From contig JAGBEM010000027.1 of NCBI GenBank assembly GCA_017936985.1, positions 1 to 55,407 on the forward strand: a DNA stretch of 55,407 nucleotides, read 5' to 3'. Below are positions 9,348-44,493 of the stretch, one piece after another. A program made the translations under genes and the position numbers. The notes below the pieces were generated by a model. That model saw only the letters and a program-made list of their open reading frames with translations. It had not been told where the DNA came from and ran no database searches. Each line of letters begins with the position of its first letter. Position 1 is the first letter of the stretch. Origin of the DNA: Oscillospiraceae bacterium (lineage in GTDB: Bacteria > Bacillota_A > Clostridia > Oscillospirales > Oscillospiraceae).

Positions 9348-9423
9348 GCACCGGTGGCTCAATGGATAGAGCATCGGATTCCGGTTCCGAGGGTTGGGGG
9401 TTCGAGTCCCTTCCGGTGTACCA
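9348..9423 (+). tRNA. tRNA-Arg (anticodon CCG), 3' end supplied by the prophage
   Basis: The cloverleaf is complete. Acceptor arm GCACCGG pairs with CCGGTGT, and a D arm is present. Anticodon stem TCGGA/TCCGA carries loop TTCCGGT (anticodon CCG, reading CGG). The T arm has TTCGAGT, and CCA is encoded. Pair 1-72 is G-T here, whereas the sequence at attR (44478-44496) continues ...CCGGTGCG and then a T run. Joined to that original chromosomal end, the acceptor stem becomes perfect (G1-C72) with discriminator G and a terminator. The prophage has therefore replaced the last bases and added CCA. Confidence 0.93.
9403..9418 (+). repeat. attL core of the prophage
   Basis: The 16-bp sequence cgagtcccttccggtg, in the T arm and acceptor stem of tRNA-Arg, is repeated exactly and in the same orientation at 44478-44493. 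The sequences diverge immediately after it (TACCA here, CGTTTTTT there), which marks the left prophage junction. Confidence 0.88.
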
Positions 9424-9476
9424 ACAGTTATTGTCACAAGCGGCTATGTCCGCATCACAGTGGCAAGATAAGACGT

Positions 9477-19997: not shown

Positions 19998-20420
19998 TTA
20001 CTGCGCTGCAGCTGCAGCAGTAGCCCCCAGAGTAGGCTTACCGGAGACTTTGATAGCTGCAGAGAACTTGACAGCATCGTTAACAGCTACGCTGGTAGCG
20101 AACTTGGTGACAACACCCTTAAAGGTCCAGGTTTTGCCGATCGCCTGGGGAAATACAATAGCGAAGTTGTGCTCTTCCTGGTCCTCCAGAGCGGCATACA
20201 TGGCTTCCTGGCCGGCATCAGCACCATCCAGGAAGCCTTCCAGCGGCACATCGCCGCCGTCTTTAAAGCCGCCGACATACTCCTTATAGCCGGAAGTATT
20301 ATCGAGAGCGGTCACTTCCGTAGGGTCAGAAGAGACTTCCACACCGCCGATGCTGGACAGGCCGCCCACAGCTTTTGAGTCAACGGTAAACTTGGTACCC
20401 ACAGATCTGGATTTAGCCAT
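19998..20420 (-). CDS. Major tail tube protein
   Basis: 140 residues beginning MAKSRSVGTKFTVDSKAVGGL. A beta-rich protein with a loop region (DPTEVTALDNTSGYKEYVGGFKDGGDVPLEGF) typical of phage tail tube proteins of the phi13/TP901-1 group, and an Ala-rich end. It polymerises as hexameric rings forming the tail tube. It follows the head-tail completion genes on the late transcript. Confidence 0.8.
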   Translation of the reverse strand: MAKSRSVGTKFTVDSKAVGGLSSIGGVEVSSDPTEVTALDNTSGYKEYVGGFKDGGDVPLEGFLDGADAGQEAMYAALEDQEEHNFAIVFPQAIGKTWTFKGVVTKFATSVAVNDAVKFSAAIKVSGKPTLGATAAAAAQ

Positions 20421-25017: not shown

Positions 25018-26757
25018 CTAGATGCTCTGTACAACCCAGTCCATCTGCTCACCGAAATACTCATTCTGCTGTAGCAGATAAACTGCATTGATCAGTGCCA
25101 CGACCATATCGACCTTGCCGTTTGATCGCTTTTTGTTCACATATCTGTTTTTGTTTGTATCGAATGTACATCTGGCATTTTCAAAATTGATTTCCAAAAG
25201 TTGGTTTTCCTCATACTGAAAATTGCCTTCCATAATCAGCTCATATAGCAGTTTCGTAGGTGGATGCAAGGTATCTGAATGCTGTCGCACAACGACCGTC
25301 TGGTAGCCTGCATGTTCCGGGTGCTGTGGTGTTGCCGAGCGGCCGCGTTCCCAGCGTTGGGCACTGGACATTGCATTGAACCGGTCATACGCAATCCCCG
25401 CCACGCTGACTCCATATTTCTCTTCAATGTCGAAAACAAAATCTTCAATCACACCATAGTCAACAATCTTGCCGCCACAGGCCACGCATTTCATTGCATC
25501 GATGAACCTGCGGTAATCGATGTGCTCTGCTGCGTTTTTCTCTTCTATGCGATCCTCCGGGATGAAAGCGATTACCTCAGCCCAAACTTTATCGTGACTT
25601 CCCATTCCTACCATAGCGACAGAACAGTTATCATTGCTTATGGCAAGGTCGCAGCCGAGATATACATTCATGCCAGTCCAGTCTAGCTTTTCCTCAGCTT
25701 TACAGGCACGTACCGCATCAATGGCAATATACGCCTCTGTTCCAATGCCCTGATAGGTGATATTGCAGTGCTTGCACAAGAAGTTCTCTCGCTCAGACTC
25801 TACCTCAATCGCACGATTGCGTTTCTTTAGAAGATCTTCCCATATCTCCGGGATCTCCAGAGCCGCAGGATTAGCATGCATGAGCACCGTATCATCGGTC
25901 ATCCAATCCTTCGGGTTATCCGGCTCAAACAAGAGCGCAAACACCGTCTTGTCCTGAATGACACCATCCAACACCCGCTTTGCGTAACTTACTTCATCCT
26001 CAAAGGGATTCTGTGTATTTGGGTACTTGGTTGATATGATCACACCCAGCTTGTTCCGTATGGTCAGCTGACCGGAACGCATAGCCTGTATGGCATATGG
26101 ATTTGGCAACGCTCCGGCTTCATCTGCAAGAAACGCAGACGGAAGTCGACCGTCTAGGCGGCTGTTGGAGTAATTCAGTGGGATATACAAAATATCCTTA
26201 GGCTTAAATGTGATGTCATTGAGCCGGATCTTGAAGTGGCGCTCCGGTTCTTCCTCCGGCCGCAGGGCCGGACTCGCCTTGATAATCTCCTCTATAGCAG
26301 ACTTAACTTCTCGGGACAGTGTGCCGTCTGGCGCAACAGAGAAGAACTTCGAAAACTTTGGTTCCAGGAAAAACAGCAATATAAACAGCACCGCAATGGT
26401 ATATGTCTTAAAGTTCTTTCTGGCAATCTCCAACACAGCGGTTTCATACTTCCGGCGCTTTGGATCTTCCCGGTACACCACGCTTAATGTAGCTATATAA
26501 AAAAGCCACTGATATCCGACGGATGCAGCATAAATGCTTTGCCCAGCTTTCAGACCCTTGGGCATTACCATCAGTTTCAGTAGCTTATCTATTTTGTTGA
26601 CGATCTTTGGGTTAATGCAGAACTCCGGATCAGAGCCATCTGCAATCGTTATGAATTCTTTTGCCTGCAGACATACATACTTTGGCGCCCGAGCCTCACC
26701 GGCCGCGACCTTGGCTGCATAAAGGTAACTGGGATGGGTTTTAATCTCCATCTTCAT
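25018..26757 (-). CDS. Terminase large subunit
   Basis: About 579 residues. The ATPase has a Walker-A-like ARKNFKT (about 113-119) and Walker B FLADEAG (about 210-216). The C-terminal RNase-H-like nuclease begins VYLGCDLAIS and continues with GVIEDFVFDIEEKYGVSVAGIAYDRFNA, supplying acidic metal ligands. It translocates DNA into the procapsid and cuts concatemers. Starts at 26760 (GTG), 26757 or 26751 are all possible. It overlaps the small subunit gene, so translation is probably coupled. Confidence 0.92.
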   Translation of the reverse strand: MKMEIKTHPSYLYAAKVAAGEARAPKYVCLQAKEFITIADGSDPEFCINPKIVNKIDKLLKLMVMPKGLKAGQSIYAASVGYQWLFYIATLSVVYREDPKRRKYETAVLEIARKNFKTYTIAVLFILLFFLEPKFSKFFSVAPDGTLSREVKSAIEEIIKASPALRPEEEPERHFKIRLNDITFKPKDILYIPLNYSNSRLDGRLPSAFLADEAGALPNPYAIQAMRSGQLTIRNKLGVIISTKYPNTQNPFEDEVSYAKRVLDGVIQDKTVFALLFEPDNPKDWMTDDTVLMHANPAALEIPEIWEDLLKKRNRAIEVESERENFLCKHCNITYQGIGTEAYIAIDAVRACKAEEKLDWTGMNVYLGCDLAISNDNCSVAMVGMGSHDKVWAEVIAFIPEDRIEEKNAAEHIDYRRFIDAMKCVACGGKIVDYGVIEDFVFDIEEKYGVSVAGIAYDRFNAMSSAQRWERGRSATPQHPEHAGYQTVVVRQHSDTLHPPTKLLYELIMEGNFQYEENQLLEINFENARCTFDTNKNRYVNKKRSNGKVDMVVALINAVYLLQQNEYFGEQMDWVVQSI

Positions 26758-27208
26758 CACCGCCTAGCACAGCCGCCAGAGGATCTGTTTCCTTTGCTTT
26801 GTTAGCTGCCGCCACAATACCGAGCTTTGCTCTGGCCTGCGGAGATAATCCCAGTTCATTGCAGCCCTGGCGGAAGTCAGACCAGTATTTTCCACGAACA
26901 CCGGCGGTATCTTTGTCCATCATCATCGCCGGATTTTTGTTTACCATGACATCAATCTCAGCGATCCTGTCCGCCGCCACGGCAGTTGCTGTCAGCACAT
27001 AGGCATCCAGCTCACCGAGTACACCTGCTTCCGCAAGGATCTTGCGGATCGTGTTGAAAATTTTGCGCTGATTGGTGGTCAATTTATAGGCCGGTTGCAC
27101 GTTCTTTGCATTACCCTTTAGCTTATTTTCAGCCGTTTTTCGGTCACTTTTTTCCTGTTTTCCGATCTTGCCTGTACCGGCTTCTGCCGGCTTTGCTGGT
27201 CTTGCCAT
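26741..27208 (-). CDS. Terminase small subunit (P27 family)
   Basis: 155 residues. Basic N-terminus (MARPAKPAEAGTGKIGKQEKSDRKTAENKLKG), then helices with TTNQRKIFNTIRKILAEAGVLGELDAYVLTATAVAADRI and the C-terminal LGLSPQARAKLGI, typical of P27-type small terminases. It recognises packaging sites (cos-type phages commonly use this family) and recruits the large subunit. Confidence 0.88.
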   Translation of the reverse strand: MARPAKPAEAGTGKIGKQEKSDRKTAENKLKGNAKNVQPAYKLTTNQRKIFNTIRKILAEAGVLGELDAYVLTATAVAADRIAEIDVMVNKNPAMMMDKDTAGVRGKYWSDFRQGCNELGLSPQARAKLGIVAAANKAKETDPLAAVLGGDEDGD

Positions 27209-27795: not shown

Positions 27796-27859
27796 TTCCT
27801 CACCTCCGGGCATAAAAATACCGCCACAGGAAATCCCATGACGGTTTAGGCATTAAAGA

Positions 27860-27947
27860 AGGGCACATTGCTGTGCCCTAAGCAAATGTCCGGATTTCAA
27901 CCGGAGCCCCGGCTAACACCGTGTACTCACCCTATACGACTATTTGC
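27860..27947 (-). ncRNA. Candidate structured RNA element upstream of the HNH gene
   Basis: On the minus strand GCAAAT (27942-27947) pairs with ATTTGC (27882-27887). It encloses a T-arm-like hairpin TCCGG-TTGAAAT-CCGGA and further G/C-rich segments, followed by an 8-bp hairpin with GCAA tetraloop (27860-27879) and TCTTTAA. The element starts at the stop codon of the preceding gene. It is not a valid tRNA (no anticodon arm). It could be a leader, attenuator or packaging-related RNA; I do not recognise its class. Confidence 0.4.
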
Positions 27948-28323
27948 CTTGCTTATTATACCAGGTTTTCAGGACGAAAGCAACCATCGCTTTTTCTTTT
28001 GCTGACAACCCCGTTGTTCCGCCTTCGTCATGTTCATAACCGTAATGCGTATGAGGTCGCTTTCCATCATGCGAATGCGATAAATCAATGGATTTTTTAC
28101 GCTTACCTTCGTCTGTATAGTAGGTAATCGAAACCGGTTTGTTTTTCTCGTTAATTGTGACATAGACCCGACCTTTAGTCTTTGTCTCCTGGGGTGTTTT
28201 TGCAGCAGTACTATCGTTGTACCGAACAAACTTTATGTTCCCCTCCGTTAGGAGCGTGGTGTATTCTGTGCCATAAATTTTACCCTTTGTAGAAATCCCA
28301 CTCGACGAACCTCTACCACCCAT
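27940..28323 (-). CDS. Small protein with toxin-like C-terminal domain, unknown function
   Basis: 127 residues beginning MGGRGSSSG, the sequence with which many phage head-associated proteins and their toxin-tailed relatives begin. It then has a basic beta-rich region (KGRVYVTINEKNKPVSITYYTDEGKRKKSIDLSHSHDGKRPHTHYGYEH) rich in His, reminiscent of the small RNase-like domains at the ends of polymorphic toxins and MuF proteins. No signal peptide is seen, and no immunity gene is recognisable nearby. The toxin idea is weak inference. Confidence 0.55.
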   Translation of the reverse strand: MGGRGSSSGISTKGKIYGTEYTTLLTEGNIKFVRYNDSTAAKTPQETKTKGRVYVTINEKNKPVSITYYTDEGKRKKSIDLSHSHDGKRPHTHYGYEHDEGGTTGLSAKEKAMVAFVLKTWYNKQGK

Positions 28324-29518: not shown

Positions 29519-30304
29519 TTAATCTAACCGGCCCGCATGCCGGTGTTGCTCGCTCTTTTCTTTTCGTGAAGTTTTAGGAATTACGACATATTTAAAATAG
29601 ATACAGCCATATTTCGTGGCCTTAATGTCCACCAGCTTGTACCCCTTTGGTGCAACAGGCGGTCTTTTTTCAGAGTAGCCGCCACGGATATGGACTTCCG
29701 TTGCAGGCTCCTTATCCGGCTTCCGTGCGTTTTTTGTCCGAAAGTACCGGTGTCCGCCTACCTCTTCTGTCCAGTGATTAAACAGGTAGTTTGCCAACCC
29801 CGTGTAGTCCTGTCCGTGGTCTACGCCATCGTACCAGCAATGCTCCCGCAAATGCTCGGGGTGTCGTACCTGTCCATATTTCCACTTCTTTTTAATAAAC
29901 TCCTCTGGGATGCCTTCTGACACCATGTGAAAGTGGATTCTGTTTGTGGATTTTCCCCTACCCATATAGAGAAAGATCACGGCATCCGGATAGGCTCGCT
30001 TTAATGCTTGTACAAACCGCTTGCGCACAATTTTGGCTTCTTCAAATGTATGTACCTCCCACTCATCGTCAAATGTGGGAGTGCAGTATATAGATGTAGG
30101 TGAGAAATTGGCATGGAACTGGCGCAAATGATTCCGACGCGAGATCTCAGTTTTGAATTTGAGATATGCTTCTTCGCTTTCAAACCGATCCTTACGGATT
30201 TTTTCCGGATCGTACTCCTCGATGTTTTTTACTCCATCTGACACATTATGAACGACCTGCTCACAGATCGCTCCCATAAAGAAACGGCGCTTCATTTGTT
30301 TCAC
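29519..30304 (-). CDS. HUH-type (rolling-circle-like) replication protein
   Basis: 261 residues. Motif-1-like TSIYCTPTFDDE, the metal-binding HUH motif RIHFHMVSEG, and a later conserved YTGLANYLFNHW (motif-3-like, with candidate nucleophile Tyr) follow in the order found in Rep/HUH endonucleases. Such enzymes nick one strand through a tyrosine-DNA bond to start replication. The GTG at 30304 with AGGAGGG was taken as start. It may initiate phage replication. The downstream catalytic Tyr is an inference from spacing. Confidence 0.7.
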   Translation of the reverse strand: MKQMKRRFFMGAICEQVVHNVSDGVKNIEEYDPEKIRKDRFESEEAYLKFKTEISRRNHLRQFHANFSPTSIYCTPTFDDEWEVHTFEEAKIVRKRFVQALKRAYPDAVIFLYMGRGKSTNRIHFHMVSEGIPEEFIKKKWKYGQVRHPEHLREHCWYDGVDHGQDYTGLANYLFNHWTEEVGGHRYFRTKNARKPDKEPATEVHIRGGYSEKRPPVAPKGYKLVDIKATKYGCIYFKYVVIPKTSRKEKSEQHRHAGRLD

Positions 30305-30385
30305 AGGAATACCCTCCTTTTTCTCTTACCGCAGATTCCGACATAGGCCTGGAATCCCAGGCCCATGGCGCAGGCTGCGCTTTTA

Positions 30386-30601
30386 TCAATGCTTTGTTTT
30401 ATGCAGCACTCTGTTTTTCTCTGTCAATTGCTCAGGATAAAATACTTCTCTGGATTTTCCAATCGGCCCGTCAAATTCTAAAACGACATAACGTCCTTTA
30501 GGATGTATGTAAGCCACTTTTCCCACCAGCGATACGCTCGGCCCTTCTTTCATTTTTGCAAATACCGGCTTCACTCTGTAGCACTGATTCAGTTCAACCA
30601 T
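30386..30601 (-). CDS. Small hypothetical phage protein
   Basis: 71 residues from MVELNQCYRVKPVFAKMKEG. The predicted fold is mostly beta strands (VGKVAYIHPKGRYVVLEFDG), compatible with a small SH3/OB-like barrel. GGGAGG precedes the ATG at 30601, and it overlaps the end of the DUF1064 gene start region by about 2 nt, so the two are probably translationally coupled. No function recognised. Confidence 0.6.
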   Translation of the reverse strand: MVELNQCYRVKPVFAKMKEGPSVSLVGKVAYIHPKGRYVVLEFDGPIGKSREVFYPEQLTEKNRVLHKTKH

Positions 30602-30603
30602 TC

Positions 30604-31128
30604 TCAAACCTCCCTGATGACATAGCCCTTATCAGCCATCATCTTATACTTATTGATATACACTCTGGTTCTGGTTCCTTTGGCCTTAACATCTTCGATT
30701 ATCCGCTCTCCCAGATGTGTGCGCCAATAAGCCATATCGTCAAAAGACACTGTTGTTGGGATATATCCCCCGCTCCAAACCACCGTGTATGTGAAATCTG
30801 CTTTATACCGTATGGCTTGAATCCGTTCTCCGCTGGATGTGGTATATGCCTCCTGCAGAGTAAAATCTTGTTGTAGGCGTAGATCTGCTATAACGCCCTC
30901 CCGGAGTGCATCCAGCAAAGCCACAAAACGTTTTGCTTCTTTTTGAGAATCGAAGGTAATTCCATTGACCTCCGTTTTCTTGTTGCCATATTTAGTGCTG
31001 CCCGCCACCGAGGCAGATTTCGCAGATGATGCCATAATTTTAACCGCCACCTGCTGCCGCATCCCTGCCGGCAGATCTGACATACTATCGTATCTTAATC
31101 CACCCATTCCTTCGCTCTCCTGTTCCAT
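30604..31128 (-). CDS. DUF1064-family protein (putative phage resolvase-like nuclease)
   Basis: 174 residues from MEQESEGMGGLRY. KYGNKKTEVNGITFDSQKEAKRFVALLDALREGVIADLRLQQDF, then YKADFTYTV and VEDVKAKGTRT match DUF1064, whose members share a restriction-endonuclease-like core and are often annotated as Holliday-junction resolvases. GGAGG stands 7 nt before the ATG at 31128; the longer frame back to 31191 lacks this. It overlaps the Lar-like ORF. Confidence 0.75.
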   Translation of the reverse strand: MEQESEGMGGLRYDSMSDLPAGMRQQVAVKIMASSAKSASVAGSTKYGNKKTEVNGITFDSQKEAKRFVALLDALREGVIADLRLQQDFTLQEAYTTSSGERIQAIRYKADFTYTVVWSGGYIPTTVSFDDMAYWRTHLGERIIEDVKAKGTRTRVYINKYKMMADKGYVIREV

Positions 31129-31345
31129 GCATCGACCTCCAACTTTGGTGTGGAGTGCATTTCCGTAAAGGCCGTACCGCAACAGGGACAATCAGGATCT
31201 TCGCCGGCAACAAAATACTCACCGCAGCAGTAACCCAAACGGGGCACCCTTCTGCACCGAGGACATGGGCGCAGTCCCCAGAGACTTTGCAGCAGGCAAT
31301 TGCAACCAGCACTGCAAAGACGATCACAGCAATTATGTACCCCAT
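31085..31345 (-). CDS. Small membrane protein overlapping a Lar-like ORF
   Basis: 86 residues starting MGYIIAVIVFAVLVAIACC, a strong N-terminal membrane helix. Its ATG lies 2 nt after the stop of the small Cys-rich gene with GAGGA upstream. Only the first ~25 residues look natural. The rest is the out-of-frame reading of the zinc-ribbon ORF on the same strand, so the native protein may once have been shorter or the two genes may have been joined by a deletion. Confidence 0.45.
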   Translation of the reverse strand: MGYIIAVIVFAVLVAIACCKVSGDCAHVLGAEGCPVWVTAAVSILLPAKILIVPVAVRPLRKCTPHQSWRSMHGTGERRNGWIKIR

Positions 31346-31477: not shown

Positions 31478-32509
31478 TTACTTTCCTCCTAATATTTGAT
31501 TGATTTTCTCATCCATTGTCTTTCCCAAGCGATAGCAGTTGCCATGGGAGATGTGGTTTTTGTACGCCCCGTAGGATGCGCAGAATTTCTTCTCCGGCAA
31601 CTTTCCATCGGCTACCAGCTTCGCCATCCGCACGAATTTACGCTGCGCATTCCGTTTATTTTGGTTCCTGACTTTCCGAATCACTTTGCCTTCTTCGGTA
31701 ATGTAGGTGTGGAAACCCAAATAATTGACGCCATTCTTAAACGGGAAGATCTGCGTCTTTCCATTTAAGGTCAGATCCAGCGTTTCCAGATACGCCGTTA
31801 CGGCTTCCAGGCAATCCTGTAGATACTCTTTGCTTGGGTAGATCAGCCAGAAGTCGTCCATATACCGGCCGTAGTATTCGATCCCCAGTTCGTGACAGAT
31901 CAGCTTATCCATGCCGTCCAGGTACATAAGCCCGAAGGCTTGGCTGATTTGATTACCCAGCGGCACTCCCTTGCCCTCTGTGCTGTCAATGAACTGATCG
32001 CATAGCCAGCAGATGTCCGGGTCGTACCCGAAATGATAGTGCACAATATCCTTCAGCTGATCGTGGGATATGCTGTAAAAGAATTTGCGGACATCGCACT
32101 TGAGAATGTACCCCGCCATACCATAGCGGGAATAGAATTGCTGCATCTGCTCGCTGAGCCGGTCCAGGCCGAATAAGGTGCCTTTCCCCTTCTGGCCAGC
32201 GCAGTTATCGTAGAGAAATACGCTCTGCAGTCTCGGTAACAGTACATTGTCACACAGACTGTGCTGTATGACCTTATCTTTAAAGGAGGAAGTCTGGATA
32301 ATACGCTCCTTCGGCTCATACACCTTAAACTCAGCATAGCCGGACACCCGGTAGTTCTTATTCCGGAGCTGAGCGATCAGTAAATTTACGCCATCCAGTG
32401 CTGCCAGGTTAAACCGGGCGGCACTTTTCTTATAGCCTTTGCCGCACTTTGCTTTGCGGAAAGCCCGGTACATATTATGAAAATCCGTTACCTTCTCGAA
32501 ATCGGTCAT
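31478..32509 (-). CDS. DGR reverse transcriptase
   Basis: 343 residues. RT motifs: LKCDVRKFFYSI with catalytic Asp139; GVPLGNQISQ (181-190), the L/I-G-x-x-x-SQ form characteristic of DGR and related RTs; YGRYMDD (213-219) with the catalytic Asp pair; and NGVNYLGFHTY as the thumb-proximal motif. The protein has RT plus thumb only, without maturase or endonuclease domains, as in DGR RTs. It would copy the template RNA (32613-32679) into cDNA with errors at adenines, together with the Avd-like protein. AGAGGG lies upstream of the ATG. Confidence 0.95.
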   Translation of the reverse strand: MTDFEKVTDFHNMYRAFRKAKCGKGYKKSAARFNLAALDGVNLLIAQLRNKNYRVSGYAEFKVYEPKERIIQTSSFKDKVIQHSLCDNVLLPRLQSVFLYDNCAGQKGKGTLFGLDRLSEQMQQFYSRYGMAGYILKCDVRKFFYSISHDQLKDIVHYHFGYDPDICWLCDQFIDSTEGKGVPLGNQISQAFGLMYLDGMDKLICHELGIEYYGRYMDDFWLIYPSKEYLQDCLEAVTAYLETLDLTLNGKTQIFPFKNGVNYLGFHTYITEEGKVIRKVRNQNKRNAQRKFVRMAKLVADGKLPEKKFCASYGAYKNHISHGNCYRLGKTMDEKINQILGGK

Positions 32510-32612
32510 ACAGCATAGCCCTCTTTGTTTATCCTCGCGGAAAGGTTGTGCGTTCTTTTGATGTGGCGTATGGATTTCGGCTTATGCCTACTCTGTCGAA
32601 CATTCCATCAAT

Positions 32613-32679
32613 ACGGGCGCACGCCGTTGTCGTTGTTGTTGTAGTGGTTGTTGTTGATGTAGCCAGACGGCGAAACGCA
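32613..32679 (-). repeat. DGR template repeat (TR)
   Basis: In coding orientation it would read CVSPSGYINNNHYNNNDNGVRP. It is full of AAC codons, the codon best placed to yield 15 amino acids when both adenines vary. All 19 adenines lie in the central 36 nt. The flanks (TGCGTTTCGCCGTCTGGC and GGCGTGCGCCCGT) have none and are identical in both VRs; the G/C-only right flank is the likely initiation-of-homology (IMH-like) site. It lies 104 nt upstream of the RT gene in non-coding sequence. Confidence 0.95.
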
Positions 32680-32710
32680 AAGGAAAAATACAACGCACAG
32701 CCTGGGTATC

Positions 32711-33079
32711 TTATTGCCGTTCCTTGGTCCTCCAGGCGATGGACATATATTTCACATCCTGCACCATCTTTGACCAGCATTCTGCTGACTTATCATTCAG
32801 CAGTTCCAGCATCATGGACAGCTCTATGTAAAACAGCAGCTCATCGCAGAGGGTGATTGCCCGGGTGATCATCTCGCACCGCTCCCGTTTGTGGGTTGCG
32901 TTGTTGATGCGGTTCGCTTCAAGCAGCGTTTCGTAGATGTCCAGGCTTTTGATCTGGATGCGGTCGACCAGGGAGTGGCGATACTTCTTAGGGTATCGGT
33001 TGCAGTTAGATGTCAGCTTGAAGGAATGAACCGCAAGGTCTTTCGCCTTGACGATTACCTTCAGGTCGTTATCTGCCAT
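32711..33079 (-). CDS. avd: Avd-like DGR accessory protein
   Basis: 122 residues, almost all helical (DLKVIVKAKDLAVHSFKLTSNC; SLVDRIQIKSLDIYETLLEANRINN; RCEMITRAITLCDELLFYIELSMML), basic in the first part. This matches the four-helix-bundle Avd family, a pentameric barrel that binds the RT and template RNA. Location between target gene and TR is the standard Avd position. GGAGAA precedes the ATG, and the start is 2 nt after the stop of target gene 1. Confidence 0.85.
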   Translation of the reverse strand: MADNDLKVIVKAKDLAVHSFKLTSNCNRYPKKYRHSLVDRIQIKSLDIYETLLEANRINNATHKRERCEMITRAITLCDELLFYIELSMMLELLNDKSAECWSKMVQDVKYMSIAWRTKERQ

Positions 33080-33081
33080 GA

Positions 33082-33636
33082 TCAGTTCTCCGAAGATTCA
33101 AAGATAGAAGAATTTAAGATCAAAAACGGGCGCACGCCGCTGTCGAGGTAGTAGTAGCGGTGGCGGTAGATGTAGCCAGACGGCGAAACGCAAACAATCC
33201 ACTTAGGTGCACTATGGGGCTGGGCGGACTCCGGCGTAGCGAGCCACCACCATTCGCCCACCTGGTACTTGTCGAAAAACTCCACATGCTCCCGGTAAAA
33301 GTCCAGGGTCACCAGACTGATTTTGGACTCCATCGTGCCGTAAGGCTTTAGACCATCCAGAGCGGTAAGGTCTGTCTGGAAGAACAGGACATTTTCCTCG
33401 CCAACGGCAGCAATGATCTCAGGGAGGATGTCATTCTGCATCTTCGCCAGCACATTACTGCTGCGAAGATCGTTATTATCACCGAACCGGGAAGAAAACG
33501 CGATGTCACGCATGACTACCGGGGTCTTGCCATCGATACTGGGGAATTTGATAAACTCCATGTCGGCGATCCGGAAGATCTCACCATCCTTGACGCCGGG
33601 GAAGCCGGCCACCTTGTTTTTTACTGCTGTACTCAT
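33082..33636 (-). CDS. DGR target protein 1 (variable C-terminus, DUF6273/CLec-like)
   Basis: 184 residues from MSTAVKNKVAGFPG (AAAGGAG precedes this ATG; the frame extends to 33663). N-terminal part to about 125, then EWWWLATP (about 128-135), WIVCVSPSGY and the variable stretch at about 157-166 before SGVRPFLIL. The WWWLAT...GVRPF framework is that of DUF6273/formylglycine-enzyme-like C-type-lectin folds used as DGR scaffolds. There is no signal peptide, membrane helix or tail-docking domain. A ligand-binding role is inferred from the fold. Confidence 0.85.
   Translation of the reverse strand: MSTAVKNKVAGFPGVKDGEIFRIADMEFIKFPSIDGKTPVVMRDIAFSSRFGDNNDLRSSNVLAKMQNDILPEIIAAVGEENVLFFQTDLTALDGLKPYGTMESKISLVTLDFYREHVEFFDKYQVGEWWWLATPESAQPHSAPKWIVCVSPSGYIYRHRYYYLDSGVRPFLILNSSIFESSEN
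33126..33192 (-). repeat. DGR variable repeat 1 (VR1)
   Basis: 67 nt aligned without gap to TR. Ten differences, all at TR adenines. The encoded residues at the variable codons are Y R H R Y Y Y L D S where TR encodes N N N H Y N N N D N. The repeat ends 42 nt before the stop codon of target gene 1, so a constant tail of residues follows. Confidence 0.95.
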
Positions 33637-33649
33637 AATTGTTCTCCTT

Positions 33650-34258
33650 TCAGTTAGATACAAAGATATCAGATTTTAAGATGCAAAACGGGCGCACGCC
33701 GTAGTCGTAGTCGCTGAAGCGGTCGTAGTAGAAGTAGCCAGACGGCGAAACGCATTTGACCCAGTGATCATCGTCATGGACAGGTGTGCTAAAGGCGGTA
33801 GCAAGCCACCACCAGTCGTCCGGTTTGTGCTTGTCCAGAATGTAGACATATTTGCGATACAGATCTGCAGTCAGCAGGGATGCAAACCGCTTAACAGAGC
33901 CATAGTCCTTCAGGCCATCATCGGAAGTCAGATCCACCTCATGTAGGATCACATTATCCTCACCGGCGATCTTGGCAATAGCCGTCGCAAACTCGATGCA
34001 GGCCTTGTCCGCATTGGAGCCGTCGTAGTTATTGCTGGTACCGAATGTGCAGGTGTCGATAAATTCCTTACAGATCAGCAACGTAGCACCATCGATGTGA
34101 TCCAGCACGATCATTTCATGCTCGCCGACCTTAACGACATCACCTGCCGCCGCATCACCAAGGCGGATGTCCTTTTCCTGCAGCCCCGCCTTGATCCGCT
34201 CGGCTTGTTCCTCGGTCAGCTCGATTTTCTGACCTTTGATTACGATGTAGTTTGACAT
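33650..34258 (-). CDS. DGR target protein 2 (variable C-terminus, DUF6273/CLec-like)
   Basis: 202 residues. An N-terminal module (MSNYIVIKGQKIELTEEQAERIKAG, to about 45) is absent from target 1. A shared region follows (VDLTSDDGLKDYGSVKRF..., matching TDLTALDGLKPYGTMESK in target 1). Then come WWWLATAF (149-156), KCVSPSGY, the variable residues at about 176-187, and YGVRPFCIL. Head-to-tail with target 1 and about 13 nt apart, it looks like a tandem duplication whose N-termini have diverged. Like target 1 it has no secretion signal. Confidence 0.85.
   Translation of the reverse strand: MSNYIVIKGQKIELTEEQAERIKAGLQEKDIRLGDAAAGDVVKVGEHEMIVLDHIDGATLLICKEFIDTCTFGTSNNYDGSNADKACIEFATAIAKIAGEDNVILHEVDLTSDDGLKDYGSVKRFASLLTADLYRKYVYILDKHKPDDWWWLATAFSTPVHDDDHWVKCVSPSGYFYYDRFSDYDYGVRPFCILKSDIFVSN
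33688..33754 (-). repeat. DGR variable repeat 2 (VR2)
   Basis: 67 nt aligned without gap to TR, with ten differences, all at TR adenines. Codon changes include ATC to TTC and TAC to TTC, so variation reaches one codon further than in VR1. VR1 and VR2 differ from each other, consistent with independent mutagenic events from the same template. Confidence 0.95.
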
Positions 34259-34753: not shown

Positions 34754-35758
34754 TCAGCTCCCGGCAATCATGACACGCATCTTATCGATGGTATCCAGTA
34801 TTGCGATCTGCAATTTGCTTCCAGTATTGGGATCAGACTGCTGAACTTTCAGCAATTGACCATGTACACGGTTAAACTCATCCACAAGCCGATTGCTAAG
34901 GGCTTGGAACACCGCTGTTTCAGGATTCGATAATTTCACCGCTTTTTGAGCCGCCGCCAGTTTCTGTTCTGCCTCTTGTGCCTTGGCAGTCGCTGCTGCC
35001 ACCTGCTGTTCTGCGGCGTTAAGCTGTTTCTGCAGATCCTCTGTAGCCTTTTGGGCAGCAGTAGCGGCCACTTCCTGGCGAAGCTGCTCCATAACGGCTT
35101 CCGGCACATCCGGGTTTTCCTTGGCCTTAGCCAAAGCCTCCTGTGCTGCCTTTTCATTTTCTTTGGCCTTTGCAACCTGCTTCTGCAGTTTCTCAAGTTT
35201 TTGTGCGGCAGCAGTTTGTTCTGCCTGCGCCTTAGCTATAGCAGCACGCAGTCGTTCGGCCTCTTCCTCAGCGCGCTTAGCAGCTTCTTTCTGCTGCTCA
35301 GCCCGTTCCTCTGCATCTGCCTGGGCGCGTTCTGCGTCTTGTTGTGCTTGCAAGGCTTCGTCCCTCTCCCGGATCGCCTGATGCAGTTCCCGGGTGGACA
35401 TATTCTCCACATCGTGGGTCTGCACAAACTCATCCCGTTCCTGTGCAGGTAATGCAAGCAATTCCAACGCCTGTGTAGGACTTAGATTCGCAAGCGCCTG
35501 CGAATTTCCAAACAGAGAGATCTGCTCACCGCCCAATTCCTTATAAAGGCGCATATAGTTATTCGCCCAGGAATGGGAGAACGGCAGCTCCTCCGCCACA
35601 TATTGCATCCAGCCGCCCGGATCAACCATCGCCTTTGCTTCAAAAAGCAGGCGCCCAATCTCGATGGCATCCATCAGGAACTGCCCCGTTTTAATCCGAA
35701 TATCCCGGGTTACCTCTGCAATACCGCGCTGATAGTTCGGTACAATCATTTCACTCAT
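34754..35758 (-). CDS. DUF3102-family protein with long coiled coil
   Basis: 334 residues. Residues ~10-110 match DUF3102 (ITRDIRIKTGQFLMDAIEIGRLLFEAKAMVDPGGWMQYVAEELPFSHSWANNYMRLYKE), a domain common in phage and plasmid DNA-processing genes. A long Ala/Glu/Lys/Gln coiled coil (about 125-280) follows, with a short helical end. Function unknown. It lies in the early operon between PcfJ and the small genes before the DGR. Confidence 0.8.
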   Translation of the reverse strand: MSEMIVPNYQRGIAEVTRDIRIKTGQFLMDAIEIGRLLFEAKAMVDPGGWMQYVAEELPFSHSWANNYMRLYKELGGEQISLFGNSQALANLSPTQALELLALPAQERDEFVQTHDVENMSTRELHQAIRERDEALQAQQDAERAQADAEERAEQQKEAAKRAEEEAERLRAAIAKAQAEQTAAAQKLEKLQKQVAKAKENEKAAQEALAKAKENPDVPEAVMEQLRQEVAATAAQKATEDLQKQLNAAEQQVAAATAKAQEAEQKLAAAQKAVKLSNPETAVFQALSNRLVDEFNRVHGQLLKVQQSDPNTGSKLQIAILDTIDKMRVMIAGS

Positions 35759-35773: not shown

Positions 35774-37828
35774 TTAAGCAGCCTTATTAGCCTTCTTTTT
35801 CTTGGGCTTTTTCGTTATTCTCTTGACCCATTCATCGATGAAGGCTTTTACCTCCTCATTTTGTGAATAGTCCTCATTGTGTGTTGTTCGGCACTGCTGA
35901 ACTTTGCCGTTTAGCCATTCCAGTGTGTAGAAAGGCTTGTCCGGCTCATCAACGCGGCGAACCAGCAAGATCGTCGTTTTCCCATTGGCCATTCTGTCGA
36001 CATAGCCGCCAACGCAGTGGTGCAGGTAAGCTCCCTCTGCTGTCAGCTCATCTCCATCCACCGGCAGGCGAATCATCAAGCCGTTTTTTTGCCATTCCAT
36101 CCAGCTGAGGCGTTTCACCTCTCGCAAAAATGCTTCGCGACTCAATTCGTTTGCCTTGTGCTTCACTTGGGCAATCGTCCTTGCGTGTGCGGCGTTCAGA
36201 TCTTGGGGAAATAAAACCGCACGATCATCGAGGTCTAAATTCAATTTGACACAATCCGCCAAATAATCACGATATGTATGCGGGGTGTCAAATGGTTTTC
36301 CGCCCCAGTAACACTTACCCTCTCGCTTTGCTTTCTCCGCTTCGATGCGGCGGCACTCACGTTCTTGTTTGACACACTCCCCCACATATTTCAGAATTTT
36401 ATGGATACTCGCGTGCCCAATTGCGTCCTTGATGTCTGCCAAAGTCGCCATCGATTCTGCCATTTCTGGTAGATCTCTCTCCGGAAGTTCGCCCGACTCG
36501 ACTTGCTTCCATAAGCCCGCCACCTTTGCAAAATCATGCATTGTCCAGTCTTGTGGCTCGTGGATTTTTAGAAACCTCGCAGGAAAGCGGAGCGCAGATT
36601 TTATACTATCCTTGCTCCAGCGGATCGTGTGCTGTGTTTCCTTGTTGAGTCCCCAAATGCGCTCAGAAACAACGCCTTTGTATCCTGCCTTCCAAAACTT
36701 CTCGATTGCCGGATACCTGACCCAGTCTAAAAGGAAGCGGATCGTGTTGCGGCGGGTCATGTAGCCATTTTTCATATGCGCCACATATTCATCCACCGGG
36801 CAGTACTGCAAGCTGGTTTCGCTGATGATTTGGCGCCAGTTTTGTGGCAGGTAAAAATAGTAGCGATCATCATATACAGCTGTTACGGATTCAAACTTTG
36901 TCCAGTTATTTAGTTTGTATCTCTGTGCGCTGCCGTACCAATTCGTTTTGGCTTCAAGCTGCCATTTTGCAACGCGGTCCCCTCGAATAGCATACCTGCA
37001 TATTTCCTCCAAAAATGCAGGTATATCTTCCCACTGTGCACTTGGGTCCCGGATCAAATGCCACTGCCTGAGAAAGACCGTTTTCCCGTCCGTCCCCTTC
37101 TGCAGCGTCACGATATCCTCCACATAGTCAACTCGGAATCTGTCGCTGGTACCCAGCAGCGCAGAGACCTCTTGGCCACAGTTTGGGCACTTGACTCTGT
37201 TGCCTTGCGTGAACCGCTCACTTCTTGCCCGCACTTCCCGTCGGCACAGATAGCAAGTCCCGCGTACATTTCCCTTTTTGTAAATGAGCACATCATCCTG
37301 TGGCAGAACATTCTGCTCGATGTAAGCAATCAGACCGTCCGGCAGCTCTTCGGGGCACAAAAGCACGTCTTCATCCCGGAGCTCGCCGCGAGCATCCCGC
37401 TCTTTTTGGGTTTCCGATTCCATAGCTTGCTGTACCCACTCGCACAGCTTCGGCACAATGCTCTTTGTGTCCGTGTTATCCTTCATATCAAGCCATTCCA
37501 GGAGTGCTGCTTTATCCTCCTTGCTTATTTTGGGAATATCACTATTGGGATAGAAACAGATCTCTCTCAATGCATACTGGGGCAACTGTCGTTGAGCAAT
37601 CCGGGAATCTCTATAAAGGAGTGCGGCTGTATTGTGTTCTTTGGAACATACAAGGCGAAAGTCCTTGCCGGTCCGCCATATGTATTTGCCCGAGTTTCTG
37701 GTAAATGCCGCCACCAGCAATTTTTCGCCGTGGATCACAGGCCAGTGCAGAGTTATTAATGCATCGTATTTCTTGCTCTTGAATTCTTGCGGCCACGGCA
37801 GCTCTTTGATACTTTTGTCGATCCTCAC
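35774..37828 (-). CDS. PcfJ-like protein
   Basis: 684 residues from a GTG (with GAGGGC upstream) at 37828; the frame continues to 37909 but would overlap the PcfK-like gene. A CxxC zinc ribbon sits near 195-240 (GTCYLCRREVRARSERF; KCPNCGQEVSAL). The C-terminus has the PcfJ hallmark GAYLHHCVGGYVDRMANGKTTILLVRR and FYTLEWLNGKVQQCRTTHN. Named after the pCF10 conjugation region, PcfJ proteins are widespread in phages and conjugative elements with unknown biochemical role. It pairs with the PcfK-like gene immediately upstream. Confidence 0.85.
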   Translation of the reverse strand: MRIDKSIKELPWPQEFKSKKYDALITLHWPVIHGEKLLVAAFTRNSGKYIWRTGKDFRLVCSKEHNTAALLYRDSRIAQRQLPQYALREICFYPNSDIPKISKEDKAALLEWLDMKDNTDTKSIVPKLCEWVQQAMESETQKERDARGELRDEDVLLCPEELPDGLIAYIEQNVLPQDDVLIYKKGNVRGTCYLCRREVRARSERFTQGNRVKCPNCGQEVSALLGTSDRFRVDYVEDIVTLQKGTDGKTVFLRQWHLIRDPSAQWEDIPAFLEEICRYAIRGDRVAKWQLEAKTNWYGSAQRYKLNNWTKFESVTAVYDDRYYFYLPQNWRQIISETSLQYCPVDEYVAHMKNGYMTRRNTIRFLLDWVRYPAIEKFWKAGYKGVVSERIWGLNKETQHTIRWSKDSIKSALRFPARFLKIHEPQDWTMHDFAKVAGLWKQVESGELPERDLPEMAESMATLADIKDAIGHASIHKILKYVGECVKQERECRRIEAEKAKREGKCYWGGKPFDTPHTYRDYLADCVKLNLDLDDRAVLFPQDLNAAHARTIAQVKHKANELSREAFLREVKRLSWMEWQKNGLMIRLPVDGDELTAEGAYLHHCVGGYVDRMANGKTTILLVRRVDEPDKPFYTLEWLNGKVQQCRTTHNEDYSQNEEVKAFIDEWVKRITKKPKKKKANKAA

Positions 37829-37838
37829 GGCAGTGCCC

Positions 37839-38213
37839 TCAAATGAAGTCTTCCAGATTGAGAATAAGCCCGCCACCGGTCGGGGCCTTGGCGTCGCCGG
37901 CGGCATCACCGATCAGATCGATGGTCATTTGCATCTGGATCTTCGCACCCGGGAAATAGAACTGCACTGCCTTCTTGTAGGCGTCCAAATCCGAAATGTA
38001 GCTTCCAACGCCCTTGGCTACGGACTTCATGCAGTCAGCAAAGGTACCACCCTGCACGATTGCCTGCGCAAACTCCTCGTCCTGCAGGCAGAAATCCTTT
38101 ATCGCCGCCACAACTGCATCTGCCATGGCCTTCTCTTTCTGACCGGCAACCGCAACCTTTTCTTTCTCCAGCTTGGCCACAGCTTGCGTAGCCCAGTTGT
38201 TCATTGTGATCAT
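37839..38213 (-). CDS. PcfK-like protein
   Basis: 124 residues from MITMNNWATQAVAKLEKE (GGAGG precedes this ATG at 38213). MADAVVAAIKDFCLQDEEFAQAIVQGGTFADCMKSVAKGVGSYISDLDAYKKAVQFYFPGAKIQ is the PcfK-like core. It and PcfJ occur as a pair here (about 10 nt apart) as in other mobile elements. Function unknown. Confidence 0.85.
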   Translation of the reverse strand: MITMNNWATQAVAKLEKEKVAVAGQKEKAMADAVVAAIKDFCLQDEEFAQAIVQGGTFADCMKSVAKGVGSYISDLDAYKKAVQFYFPGAKIQMQMTIDLIGDAAGDAKAPTGGGLILNLEDFI

Positions 38214-39293: not shown

Positions 39294-39368
39294 TGGAGGG
39301 CAAGGCCGGATTCGAACCGACTGCCTCCCGCTGTGCTACGGGTATGCTTCCTGAAGCACCTCTCGCCC
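39294..39368 (-). tRNA. tRNA-like element with abnormal anticodon arm
   Basis: 75 nt. Acceptor GGGCGAG pairs with CTTGCCC (one G-T), the discriminator is T, and CCA is encoded. D arm GTGC-8 nt-GCAT. T arm GTCGG-TTCGAAT-CCGGC. The anticodon arm is odd: CCCG pairs with CGGG across an 8-nt loop TAGCACAG that lacks a normally placed T33. The element is too complete to be chance but would not make a standard tRNA. It could be a phage tRNA under decay, an unusual (frameshift-type) tRNA, or a tRNA mimic. Confidence 0.5.
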
Positions 39369-42759: not shown

Positions 42760-44442
42760 ATGGCTATCAAACGACAACACGGTGCATTTATCAATGCCCG
42801 CTATTCCACAGATAATCAAAATCCAGACAGCATCGAAGTCCAGGTCGATAAATGCACAGAATGGTGCCGGCAGAACGACATGCCCATTCTGGGTGTTTTT
42901 GCAGATGAAGCCACCTCCGGAATGAAAGATACTCGGCCCCAATACGAAGCTATGATGCAACAGCTCAGGCAGGGCCTTGCGGACACGGTTGTCATTTACG
43001 ATCAGTCCCGCATGTTCCGCAAAATGACCGCATGGTTTGCCTTTCGCGATGAGCTGTCCTCTATGGGTGTCCGGGTGGTGTGCGTTACCCAGCCGATGAT
43101 CGGCAAGGATCTCCGCGATCCCACCAACTTCCTAACCGAAGGCAGTATGGCTTTGTTTAATCAAATCTGGGCATTGCAGACCCGGCAGAAAGTCATGGAG
43201 AAGATGCGCTTCATGGCCCGCAACGGTCTGCACACAGGCGGCAAGCCCGCTCTTGGATATGTTGTAGAAGATGGCCGACTTGTGGTCTGCGAAGAAGAAG
43301 CCGCCACAGTGCGACGGATATTCCGGGAGTACGCTTCCGGCATGTCTTACCGGCAGATTATCGAGGGCTTGAATGCCGATGGTATTAAAACTAAGCGTGG
43401 CAATACTTTCGGCTCCAACAGCCTGCACGATCTTCTACACAACGAGAAGTATATTGGTGTGCTGACCTACGGCGCTATGCCCTACCGGGAGGACGGCACA
43501 CGCAACACGCACAGCAAAGATGGCACCGATGTGATCCGCATTGAAGATGCCATACCGCCCATTGTCGATAAAGACCTCTTCGATCGGGTGCAACAGAAGC
43601 TCAACCTTCGCAAACGCCAGCAAGGCGGCAGGCCGGCCATAAACCGGGAATACCCTCTCAGGGGAAAAGTGTTCTGTGCAGAATGCAAGTCCGCCATGAC
43701 GGTTAGCATCTCCCATCAGAAGTATTATTACTACCGCTGCACCGGCAAGAAACGACTGCATACTTGCGATGCAGCGCCAATCGCTGTTGATGAGCTGGAG
43801 CAAGCTGTGATAGATAACCTCCGCAGTTTCTTCGGCTCGCCCCAAAAGATTGAAGAGTTAATTATCATCCTGCGATCACAGTCACAAGGAATCCAGAACG
43901 ACGCCGTTGCCCGCCTGCAGGTATTGATTGCCCAAAGCAAAGAAATTTCTACCAAGCTGGACAACGCCCTAGATGCCGTTCTGAACGGTCTCGCTAGCCC
44001 TGCGCTGAAAGACAGGATTGTAGATCTGGAAACACAGAAAGCAACTGTAGAAAGGGATATGCGTATACTGAAAGCCAATGTAGATGCCTCCGCACTACCA
44101 GAGCAACGCCTTCGGGAAATCTTGGCAAACATCATTCGCTGCCCTGAAGCAGATCCTTCTGTCCTATTTTCCCTTGTCTACCGCGTGGAAGTAGCCAGCG
44201 ACCGCATCGACATATGGACCATCCTAGATGCAGATCCAGACGGGCATATCGACCTTTCCACAGATGCGGAATTGACAACAACTGTTCAGTTCCCTTCCGG
44301 TGTACCAATAAAAGACGCAGGGGATGATAAAATCCACTGCGTCTTTTATTTATGCAGAGAGGAAGGGACTCGAACGATCAAATCGCAATATGCTGGTGGC
44401 ATATTGCTGCAACCAGTTCAAAAAAACTGGTTGCTACCTTAA
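42760..44442 (+). CDS. int: Large serine integrase
   Basis: 560 residues. Resolvase domain with catalytic Ser16 (NARYSTDNQ) and VVIYDQSRMFRKM. Recombinase domain near 190-300 (GKPALGYVVEDG; IKTKRGNTFGSNSLHDLLHNEKYIG), then zinc ribbon (CAECKSAMTV ... YYRCTGKK ... CDAAP), then coiled coil (DLETQKATVERDMRILKANV). It catalyses attP x attB recombination and sits at the right end next to attR. The last ~27 residues overlap the inverted-repeat region (see 44361-44489). GGAGG precedes the ATG. Confidence 0.92.
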   Translation: MAIKRQHGAFINARYSTDNQNPDSIEVQVDKCTEWCRQNDMPILGVFADEATSGMKDTRPQYEAMMQQLRQGLADTVVIYDQSRMFRKMTAWFAFRDELSSMGVRVVCVTQPMIGKDLRDPTNFLTEGSMALFNQIWALQTRQKVMEKMRFMARNGLHTGGKPALGYVVEDGRLVVCEEEAATVRRIFREYASGMSYRQIIEGLNADGIKTKRGNTFGSNSLHDLLHNEKYIGVLTYGAMPYREDGTRNTHSKDGTDVIRIEDAIPPIVDKDLFDRVQQKLNLRKRQQGGRPAINREYPLRGKVFCAECKSAMTVSISHQKYYYYRCTGKKRLHTCDAAPIAVDELEQAVIDNLRSFFGSPQKIEELIIILRSQSQGIQNDAVARLQVLIAQSKEISTKLDNALDAVLNGLASPALKDRIVDLETQKATVERDMRILKANVDASALPEQRLREILANIIRCPEADPSVLFSLVYRVEVASDRIDIWTILDADPDGHIDLSTDAELTTTVQFPSGVPIKDAGDDKIHCVFYLCREEGTRTIKSQYAGGILLQPVQKNWLLP

Positions 44443-44489
44443 TTTTTGCCCGTCTTATGCAAGGGCAAAAATGCAAACGAGTCCCTTCC
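44361..44489. repeat. Cloverleaf of inverted repeats at attR
   Basis: Outer 12-bp inverted repeat (GGAAGGGACTCG 44361-44372; CGAGTCCCTTCC 44478-44489) enclosing three perfect hairpins: 9 bp (44385-44393 with 44399-44407), 10 bp (44409-44418 with 44425-44434) and 9 bp (44443-44451 with 44463-44471). The right outer arm is the core of attR and matches the tRNA-Arg T arm. The left arm is its inverted copy inside the integrase 3' end. It may be an att-associated structure, a regulatory RNA, or a small palindromic element. Confidence 0.75.
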
Positions 44490-44493
44490 GGTG
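44478..44493 (+). repeat. attR core of the prophage
   Basis: Exact copy of the 16-bp tRNA-Arg segment at 9403-9418. Followed by CGTTTTTT, which restores a perfect tRNA acceptor stem and terminator when joined to the tRNA, showing the pre-integration chromosome end. Confidence 0.88.

What the first reader, a model, noticed from the sequence alone, without database searches (positions are those of the whole stretch)
31478..34258. Complete diversity-generating retroelement with strict adenine-specific variation
RT with YMDD and GNQISQ, Avd-like helical protein, a 67-nt template repeat and two 67-nt variable repeats. Aligned without gaps, VR1 and VR2 each differ from TR at 10 sites, all adenine in TR; 0 of 48 non-adenine sites differ. 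Such a pattern cannot arise by ordinary drift and shows that the system has been active.
Basis: partly seen in the sequence, partly recalled or inferred. Interest (0 to 1): 0.95.

Follow-up and report, generated by a model that had tools for sequence, protein, structure and literature searches.

The report
Phage mutator rewriting early lectin proteins
A likely prophage carries a self-mutating cassette: the ends of two small genes match a nearby template except at its adenines, and because the two proteins, predicted to fold like C-type lectins, are encoded among the phage's replication genes and not its tail genes, they likely bind something inside the infected cell rather than help the phage attach to it.

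Summary
TR (32613-32679, minus strand) and both VRs are 67 nt; each VR differs from TR at 10 of 19 adenines and 0 of 48 other bases. RT, Avd and target genes are open, so this is a diversity-generating retroelement (DGR), a known kind.

They lie in the phage's replication module, about 10 kb from the nearest recognised neck or tail gene. The order T2-T1-Avd-RT recurs in 26 non-redundant relatives, some with unrelated terminases; the RTs form one group (99/98). (2) The template RNA has a covarying helix that closes the TR. (3) Immediately 3' of each VR lies DNA conserved at synonymous sites. All 40 viral-contig stretches that hold its consensus carry these target genes. (4) Orthologs identical outside the VR differ inside it.

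An early, non-tail role is the most interesting inference; it rests on position and domain content and is untested.

The parts
31478..32509 (-). DGR reverse transcriptase (343 aa; LGNQISQ, YMDD)
   Evidence: RVT_1 2.6e-15; phrog_1423 6.6e-106; PDB 8ub7 1.4e-30
32532..32541 (-). spacer hairpin 2 of the template RNA (3 pairs)
   Evidence: 100% of cells paired, 2 pairs with changes on both sides
32543..32554 (-). 3' arm of the helix that closes the TR (spacer)
32579..32588 (-). spacer hairpin 1 (GGC...GCC) in the conserved GTAGGCA..AGCCGAAA block
32613..32679 (-). template repeat (TR), intergenic; 19 A, none at codon position 3 of the VR frame; no A-to-N change can make a stop codon
32692..32703 (-). 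5' arm of the helix that closes the TR (between the Avd stop and TR); 11 of 12 pairs form in the window
32711..33079 (-). Avd (122 aa)
   Evidence: phrog_3206 5.4e-19; NF033474 3e-9, 37.1 bits, below its cut-off of 80
33082..33636 (-). target protein T1 (184 aa from ATG; DUF6273 type, predicted C-type lectin fold)
33126..33192 (-). VR1, T1 codons for CVSPSGYIYRHRYYYLDSGVRP
33095..33129 (-). synonymous-site-conserved element 3' of VR1 (starts in the last VR bases)
33650..34258 (-). target protein T2 (202 aa; DUF6273 type, predicted C-type lectin fold, pLDDT 91.7)
33688..33754 (-). VR2, T2 codons for CVSPSGYFYYDRFSDYDYGVRP
33657..33691 (-). synonymous-site-conserved element 3' of VR2 (ATCT x4, spacing 8/7/8; starts in the last VR bases)
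34754..35758 (-). context: DUF3102 protein, upstream of the targets, same strand
   Evidence: 2.2e-31
35774..37909 (-). context: PcfJ-like protein
   Evidence: 4.4e-33
29519..31191 (-). context downstream of RT: DUF1064/Holliday-junction-resolvase-like (30604-31191), replication initiation protein (29519-30304)
25018..27208 (-). context: terminase large (25018-26760) and small (26741-27208) subunits; portal, head, neck, tail and lysin genes follow down to 10.2 kb
42760..44442 (+). context: serine recombinase/integrase of the likely prophage; copies of the tRNA-Arg 3' end (9403-9424) lie at 44291 (18 nt) and 44478 (16 nt)

Best explanation
This is a diversity-generating retroelement of a likely prophage: two 67-nt variable repeats match one intergenic template everywhere except at template adenines, which the RT-Avd pair is predicted to copy with errors from a template RNA before the copy replaces the repeats at the 3' ends of two target genes predicted to encode lectin folds. 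Shown by sequence: the open gene set, the adenine-only pattern here and in relatives, a covarying RNA helix closing the TR, and DNA 3' of each VR conserved at synonymous sites. Inferred: the helix holds the template for RT-Avd and helps start or end the copy; the 3' element marks the DNA where the copy is taken up, the job that a hairpin does in BPP-1. Inferred from position and domain content: T2-T1-Avd-TR-RT is one early transcript, and T1 and T2 are early, likely cytoplasmic binding proteins whose variable face meets a changing partner in the cell (host defence proteins or a competing phage), not tail adhesins. I put the DGR mechanism at 0.97 and the early, non-tail role at about 0.55; the number below is for the two together with the role stated as likely.
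For: Mechanism: 10/19 A and 0/48 non-A in each VR. 28 of 35 non-redundant loci, the window included, give 49 A-specific pairs with 549/995 A and 11/2412 non-A sites changed; 0 of 35 for C, G or T as mutable base (the finder admits at most 3 non-A mismatches per 60, so the C/G/T runs are the control). RT best in PDB 8ub7. Seven most variable of 202 columns in 116 orthologs are VR residues; 16 ortholog pairs at 95% or more identity outside the VR (not independent of each other) average 63% inside it and 95% in the 22 residues before it. RNA helix: 12 pairs, 94.9% of cells paired, 7 pairs with changes on both sides; all three helices 96.6% against 30-46% when slid. 3' element: in T2 the 7 codons that never vary, of 60 conserved codons with synonyms, all lie at 190-200; 10 of the 60 lie at 190-201, hypergeometric 3.1e-7, mean share of the top codon 0.94 there against 0.53 before the VR; T1 0.92 (7 codons) against 0.56. 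40 of 40 stretches with the consensus in viral contigs are T1/T2 loci, 47 of 49 matches at the gene's 3' end, the other two at contig ends. Position: DUF3102/PcfJ upstream, resolvase-like and replication genes downstream, TerS/TerL further on; TerL 3.1-8.7 kb downstream of RT on the same strand in 12 non-redundant loci and, by PHROGs, in L007 and L055 with another terminase and portal; in L046, L053 and L019 the gene recognised before the cassette is a divergent Cro/C1-type HTH gene, and Sak, RecE-like, NinB or DnaC-like genes follow. No membrane stretch by hydropathy. T1 stop to Avd start 2 nt, T2 stop to T1 ATG 13 nt.
Against: Role: no expression or virion data exist here; position is the only evidence for early expression, and in many loci no terminase or other marker was recognised. 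DUF6273-like folds also occur in viral proteins named receptor-binding, tail sheath or endopeptidase tail, and T1/T2 weakly match a PHROG called Hoc-like head decoration (T2 7.8e-6, T1 0.0046). The nd4/nd12 authors take the like proteins as receptor binders. In L019 the terminase lies beyond the integrase on the opposite strand. An early place could serve the timing of the RT rather than the job of the targets. Mechanism: the RNA fold is not exceptional from the window alone (z 0.36; 53 of 300 shuffles pair as well); the scored structure came from the same alignment, related rows can beat shuffles, and one of five shuffle measures was reached by 29 of 500. The BPP-1-type GC hairpin was not found. 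The consensus of the 3' element was drawn from these genes, so its scan shows specificity, not function.
Confidence: 0.8

Rival explanations
1. T1 and T2 are virion proteins, tail-tip or capsid-decoration adhesins, encoded away from the tail module; the DGR then changes host range or mucus binding as in BPP-1.
For: Previously known phage DGR targets were structural (PMC8008677, abstract passage). DUF6273-only proteins of nd4/nd12 are proposed receptor binders (PMC10743442, section 2.5). Weak match to a Hoc-like PHROG. Viral structure matches include proteins named Receptor Binding Protein and Endopeptidase tail.
Against: 184-202 aa single domains in which no Ig or other attachment domain was found. 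Cassette among replication genes in more than one phage backbone. Same strand as and nearly gapless with Avd.
Confidence: 0.35
2. The early place serves the retroelement, not the targets: RT, Avd and template RNA are made during phage replication because cDNA is taken up best on the lagging strand, and the phage's annealing and resolving enzymes may help; the targets only ride along.
For: Editing prefers targets co-directional with replication in the reconstituted BPP-1 DGR (PMC12875486, passages). Sak, Erf, RecE-like, NinB and resolvase-like genes follow the cassette in several relatives.
Against: Does not explain why both targets lie in the same run of genes, nor why nd4 keeps RT and first target together and its second target 11.7 kb away beside a polymerase gene.
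Confidence: 0.3
3. A once active DGR now decaying: the VR differences are old and the RT is no longer used.
For: Some relatives look decayed: in L023/L052 a T2 fragment abuts the RT and no Avd, T1 or TR/VR pair was found; the matched RT stretch of L005 holds a stop.
Against: Window ORFs open; motifs kept; VRs free of stops; orthologs nearly identical outside the VR differ inside it.
Confidence: 0.08
4. Chance repeats or gene conversion between paralogs without reverse transcription.
For: T1 and T2 hit the same PHROG, so their VRs could share sequence by descent.
Against: The TR is intergenic, and all mismatches fall on its adenines in both VRs (P 3.7e-7 each); 0 of 35 loci for any other base.
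Confidence: 0.01

Closest known systems
Bordetella phage BPP-1 DGR (mtd-avd-TR-brt)
   Same: Gene order target-Avd-TR-RT; adenine-specific change; VR at the target's 3' end; RT related (29% identity); pairing between the sequence 5' of TR and the spacer is also possible there (16 pairs with 4 G-U, no control run).
   Different: Mtd is a tail protein beside tail genes; here two single-domain targets away from them. TR 134 nt against 67. No GC hairpin found 3' of the VR; a conserved ATCT-type element instead.
Phages nd4 and nd12 (PMC10743442)
   Same: RT 42% and 51% identical, two targets, C-type-lectin DUF6273 domains; their second target is a DUF6273-only protein with a C-terminal VR, and in nd4 its VR lies 11.7 kb from the TR in a gene beside one annotated DNA polymerase III alpha subunit.
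   Different: Their first target is a tentaclin (N-terminal lectin plus Ig domains) just 3' of the RT and before the amidase gene. Here no tentaclin was found; RT and both targets sit together among replication genes.
Faecalibacterium phages Toutatis, Lelie, Brigit (DGRs: PMC11792537, passages)
   Same: Related RT (37-39%); TR-closing pairing of another sequence in Toutatis (3 of 300 shuffles as good); DUF6273 targets in Lelie.
   Different: Cassette between baseplate/tail and lysis-type genes.
Quimbyviridae DGR (PMC8008677, passages)
   Same: A phage DGR target away from the structural genes, on the other strand, among defence-related genes.
   Different: There one of two targets is next to the tail fibre genes; here neither is. 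Not compared by sequence here.

Membership tests
Diversity-generating retroelement | RT of the DGR clade with [ILV]GxxxSQ and YxDD (motif recalled) | tested here: met
   LGNQISQ and YMDD; PDB 8ub7 best. YxDD in 50 of 55 relatives with an RT start, copies included; 37 of those 50 have LGNQINQ in place of SQ
Diversity-generating retroelement | TR and VR nearly identical, mismatches at TR adenines | tested here: met
   10/19 A and 0/48 non-A in each VR
Diversity-generating retroelement | Avd accessory protein | tested here: met
   phrog_3206 5.4e-19; the NCBIfam Avd model matches at 3e-9 but below its curated cut-off; Pfam bAvd only 0.055
Diversity-generating retroelement | VR in a C-type lectin fold | tested here: met
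Diversity-generating retroelement | GC-rich conserved 3' end of TR and VR (IMH/IMH*) | tested here: met
   GGCGTGCGCCCGT identical in TR, VR1, VR2, then A in TR against T in VR
Diversity-generating retroelement | Mutagenic retrohoming observed | not testable with these tools
   no reads or cultures; past activity only
BPP-1-type DGR target site | GC-rich hairpin of 7-10 bp with GRNA loop 4-34 bp 3' of VR | tested here: not met
   only 6-nt palindromes found within about 45 nt, DNA fold no better than shuffles; definition from PMC3240598, passages
Tentaclin | N-terminal C-type lectin domain followed by Ig domains | tested here: not met
   184 and 202 aa, VR at the C-terminus, no Ig domain match
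Pfam DUF6273 (PF19789) | score above the gathering cut-off of 23.5 bits | tested here: inconclusive
   17.0 and 15.9 bits for T1 and T2; PF19789 is precomputed for some of the orthologs listed
Phage tail adhesin | part of the virion | not testable with these tools
   no virion data; position argues against

The most novel reading that the evidence does not exclude
A clade of gut prophages has moved the whole DGR into the early operon and turned it on two intracellular lectin-fold proteins: a phage-borne, antibody-like repertoire against changing host defences or rival phages, with a periodic ATCT DNA tag as a new kind of retrohoming target site.
Probability: 0.35. Interest if true: 0.82.

Novelty: new variant of a known kind. 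Interest (0 to 1): 0.58.

Why it matters
Phage DGRs are mostly read as tail-fibre diversifiers. A clade whose only targets found are small proteins encoded among replication genes would extend hypermutation to what happens after DNA entry and give a model for non-structural targets, which I saw proposed for one of two targets in Quimbyviridae and see by position in nd4. The 3' element and the TR-closing helix are short, conserved and testable, and bear on the open question of how the cDNA finds its target.

Tried and rejected
Third VR in the window: none. In the MAG genome of L056 (G001) the TR finds only the TR and its two VRs, but in G002-G004 it found only the TR and missed the known VRs, so that search is not sensitive. 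Host of the window: no whole genome held, so host and reads could not be studied. att sites: one search looked for repeats within each end only and tested nothing; one search compared the ends and found the 3' end of tRNA-Arg repeated near the integrase (18 nt at 44291, 16 nt at 44478). Near-identical DNA pairs with different VRs: the near-100% pairs among loci look like copies of one assembly, so protein orthologs were used. Single-sequence RNA fold: no signal. Strict four-ATCT pattern: 1 match in the window (T2 only), 23 of 91 loci; the broader consensus was used afterwards. Anti-phage defence families: the RT matches many RT and DRT models; no match for T1, T2 or Avd. PDB by sequence for T2: nothing convincing. 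An earlier version of the 3'-element odds used 11 positions; it is 10.

Dropped rows: 17 redundant and 4 distant loci and those with the RT at a contig edge were left out; 7 of 35 without an ungapped hit are L001, L039, L002, L058, L021, L023, L025, of which L001, L039 and L021 show gapped or partial A-specific pairs. L035 left out of the codon tables. Tree labels: rows of the two close RT searches were labelled 'up' although the order is visible only where the contig reaches that far; 'other' rows were not each checked.
Full report
Check of the observation. The three repeats were re-aligned without gaps. TR is 32613-32679, VR1 33126-33192, VR2 33688-33754, all minus strand. VR1 and VR2 each differ from TR at 10 of 19 adenines and 0 of 48 other bases; drawn at random, ten mismatches would all hit adenines with P = 3.7e-7. 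None of the 22 TR codons can become a stop by a change at A, and no A is at the third codon position. The RT (343 aa) has YMDD and LGNQISQ, matches the PHROG RT family at 6.6e-106 and, among solved structures, 8ub7 best (1.4e-30; next 5.3e-9). That 8ub7 and its sister entries are the BPP-1 DGR complex is from memory; the table says only 'Reverse transcriptase'. Avd matches phrog_3206.

Surroundings. PHROG and Pfam calls place lysin, tail, tape measure, neck, head, portal and terminase genes from 10.2 to 27.2 kb, nuclease, replication and resolvase-like genes from 28.3 to 31.2 kb, the DGR at 31.5-34.3 kb, then DUF3102 and PcfJ, a divergent weak HTH match with an IrrE-like metallopeptidase, and a serine recombinase at 42.8-44.4 kb. 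The nearest recognised neck or tail-completion gene ends at 21335 and the major tail protein at 20420, 10-11 kb from the RT. A tRNA-Arg gene stands at 9348-9423; its 3' end recurs beside the integrase; the gene before it is FtsH. So this is likely a prophage of about 35 kb.

Relatives. The RT finds 40 loci in viral contigs and 18 in bacterial MAGs, the latter Oscillospiraceae or other Clostridia; those titles that tell a source name yak, goat, sheep or roe deer gut. In one search, 26 non-redundant loci show T2-T1-Avd-RT in this order; in L031 and L037 T1 lies about 6 kb upstream of T2; others are cut by contig ends or show one target. TerL is 3.1-8.7 kb downstream of RT on the same strand in 12 non-redundant loci; in the rest none was recognised by that profile. 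L007 and L055 carry a terminase and portal of other PHROGs (979/2 and 156) than the window (9 and 12), again downstream. In L046, L053 and L019 the recognised gene before the cassette is a Cro/C1-type HTH gene on the other strand, with an integrase beyond it, and Sak, RecE-like, NinB or DnaC-like genes follow; in L058 the two proteins tested there gave no HTH match. In L019 the terminase lies beyond the integrase on the opposite strand. In a tree of 59 RTs the 33 rows from the close searches, window included, form one group (99/98). Six of the more distant RTs (L074, L076, L084, L085, L087, L090) have a T1- or T2-like match on the far side of the RT, as nd12 does.

Adenine specificity in the family. 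With TR sought in the 330 nt before the RT, 28 of 35 non-redundant loci (window included) give 49 pairs: 549 of 995 A sites and 11 of 2412 other sites changed. The same search with C, G or T as mutable base gives 0 of 35. Changes from A go to G 288, T 230, C 31; the second A of AAC became C at 1 of 333 sites (180 changed), like the imbalance reported for nd4/nd12 (PMC10743442, passage). An earlier count on redundant loci gave 539/1010 A and 18/2466 others.

Activity. The protein search found 3585 T2 homologs, 120 listed. Of these, 116 of suitable length were aligned: the seven most variable columns of 202 are VR residues 175, 177, 178, 180, 182, 184, 186. Two orthologs identical at 180 of 180 residues outside the VR differ at 6 of 22 inside; 16 pairs at 95% or more outside average 63% inside and 95% in the 22 residues before it. 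This shows recent diversification in the family, not in the window's own prophage.

Template RNA. In 34 aligned loci twelve positions 5' of TR pair with the spacer: 94.9% of cells paired, 7 pairs with changes on both sides; two small hairpins in the spacer are 100% paired. The three helices together are 96.6% paired against 30-46% when slid. None of 500 shuffles reaches the pairing, the double changes or the covariation score, while 29 of 500 reach the number of pair types; the structure came from the same alignment, which favours it. From the window alone the fold is not unusual (z 0.36). Pairings of other sequence in the same place exist in nd4 (4 of 300 shuffles as good) and Toutatis (3 of 300), but for the window 53 of 300; BPP-1 can pair 16 positions (4 G-U) between the avd end and the spacer (no control). 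PMC12875486 (passages) says the BPP-1 spacer folds and recruits the RT-Avd complex and that a motif in avd ends the copy; the structure paper was not held, so I cannot say whether this helix is already described there.

The 3' element. Downstream of both VRs the DNA fits CCGTTTTNNATCTTNNANTCTNNTATCTNTGNATC. In T2, of 60 conserved codons with synonyms, the seven that never vary in codon among 30 sequences all lie at codons 190-200 (P, F, L as TTA, S, I, F, V). Ten of the 60 lie at 190-201 (hypergeometric 3.1e-7; the stretch was chosen after looking), with a mean top-codon share of 0.94 against 0.53 before the VR. T1 is weaker: two codons never vary (TCT 175, ATC 177), mean 0.92 against 0.56. 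The strict ATCT-N4-ATCT-N3-ATCT-N4-ATCT form occurs once in the window, none in 100 shuffles. A scan of viral contigs (2.9 million by the tool's text) gave 40 stretches with 49 matches, every stretch a T1/T2 locus; 47 matches lie at the 3' end of a T1/T2 match, the other two at contig ends where the gene is cut. The consensus was drawn from these genes, so this shows specificity only. The element is missing from the TR flank. Since no BPP-1-type hairpin was found, the simplest reading is that this DNA marks the site of cDNA uptake; untested.

Comparison and novelty. It meets the DGR definition. It is not a tentaclin and lacks the BPP-1 hairpin. Two-target DGRs with DUF6273 lectins are known from nd4/nd12 (PMC10743442: outline with abstract, passages, section 2.5) and Faecalibacterium phages (PMC11792537: passages). 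A non-structural target has been proposed in Quimbyviridae (PMC8008677: passages). PMC8144416, PMC12875486, PMC3240598, PMC7981956 and PMC10053308 were seen as passages; other papers as listings only. In nd4 the second target lies far from the RT, a point I did not see in the passages read. New here, as far as I saw: a clade with all targets found among replication genes, the 3' element, and the covarying helix in this clade. My paper searches (titles and abstract starts, plus the passages cited) showed none of the three, which is weak evidence of absence.

Verdict. Ordinary in mechanism, unusual in target and place. New variant of a known kind.

Noticed in passing
window 27852-27950 (-): Match to Rfam SpF41, a Streptococcus sRNA family (59.8 bits, cut-off 52), between the HNH gene and a gene of unknown function upstream of the terminase.
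   Followed up: no
L023/L052 about 7.8-9.0 kb: Decayed-looking cassette: a T2-like fragment abuts the RT; Avd, T1 and a TR/VR pair not found.
   Followed up: partly
L109 and L123 (one 143.8-kb viral contig): A large contig carries T2-Avd-RT and, in another stretch, a T1 gene with the same 3' element, recalling L031 and L037.
   Followed up: partly
RT motif before YMDD in relatives: 37 of 50 relatives' RTs (copies included) have LGNQINQ where DGR RTs usually have SQ; the window has SQ.
   Followed up: no
L005 RT: The matched RT stretch holds a stop codon; described only.
   Followed up: no
window 39294-39368 (-): ARAGORN reports a tRNA-like gene of unclear anticodon, not among the Rfam matches.
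   Followed up: no
window 9403-9424, 44291-44308, 44478-44493: The 3' end of tRNA-Arg is repeated inside and just after the integrase gene; likely attachment sites.
   Followed up: partly
TR 3' end, CGTATTG against CGTTTTG in VR: An A (TR) to T (VR) difference recurs in relatives whose TR reads CGTATT and looks like a boundary mark, not mutagenesis.
   Followed up: partly
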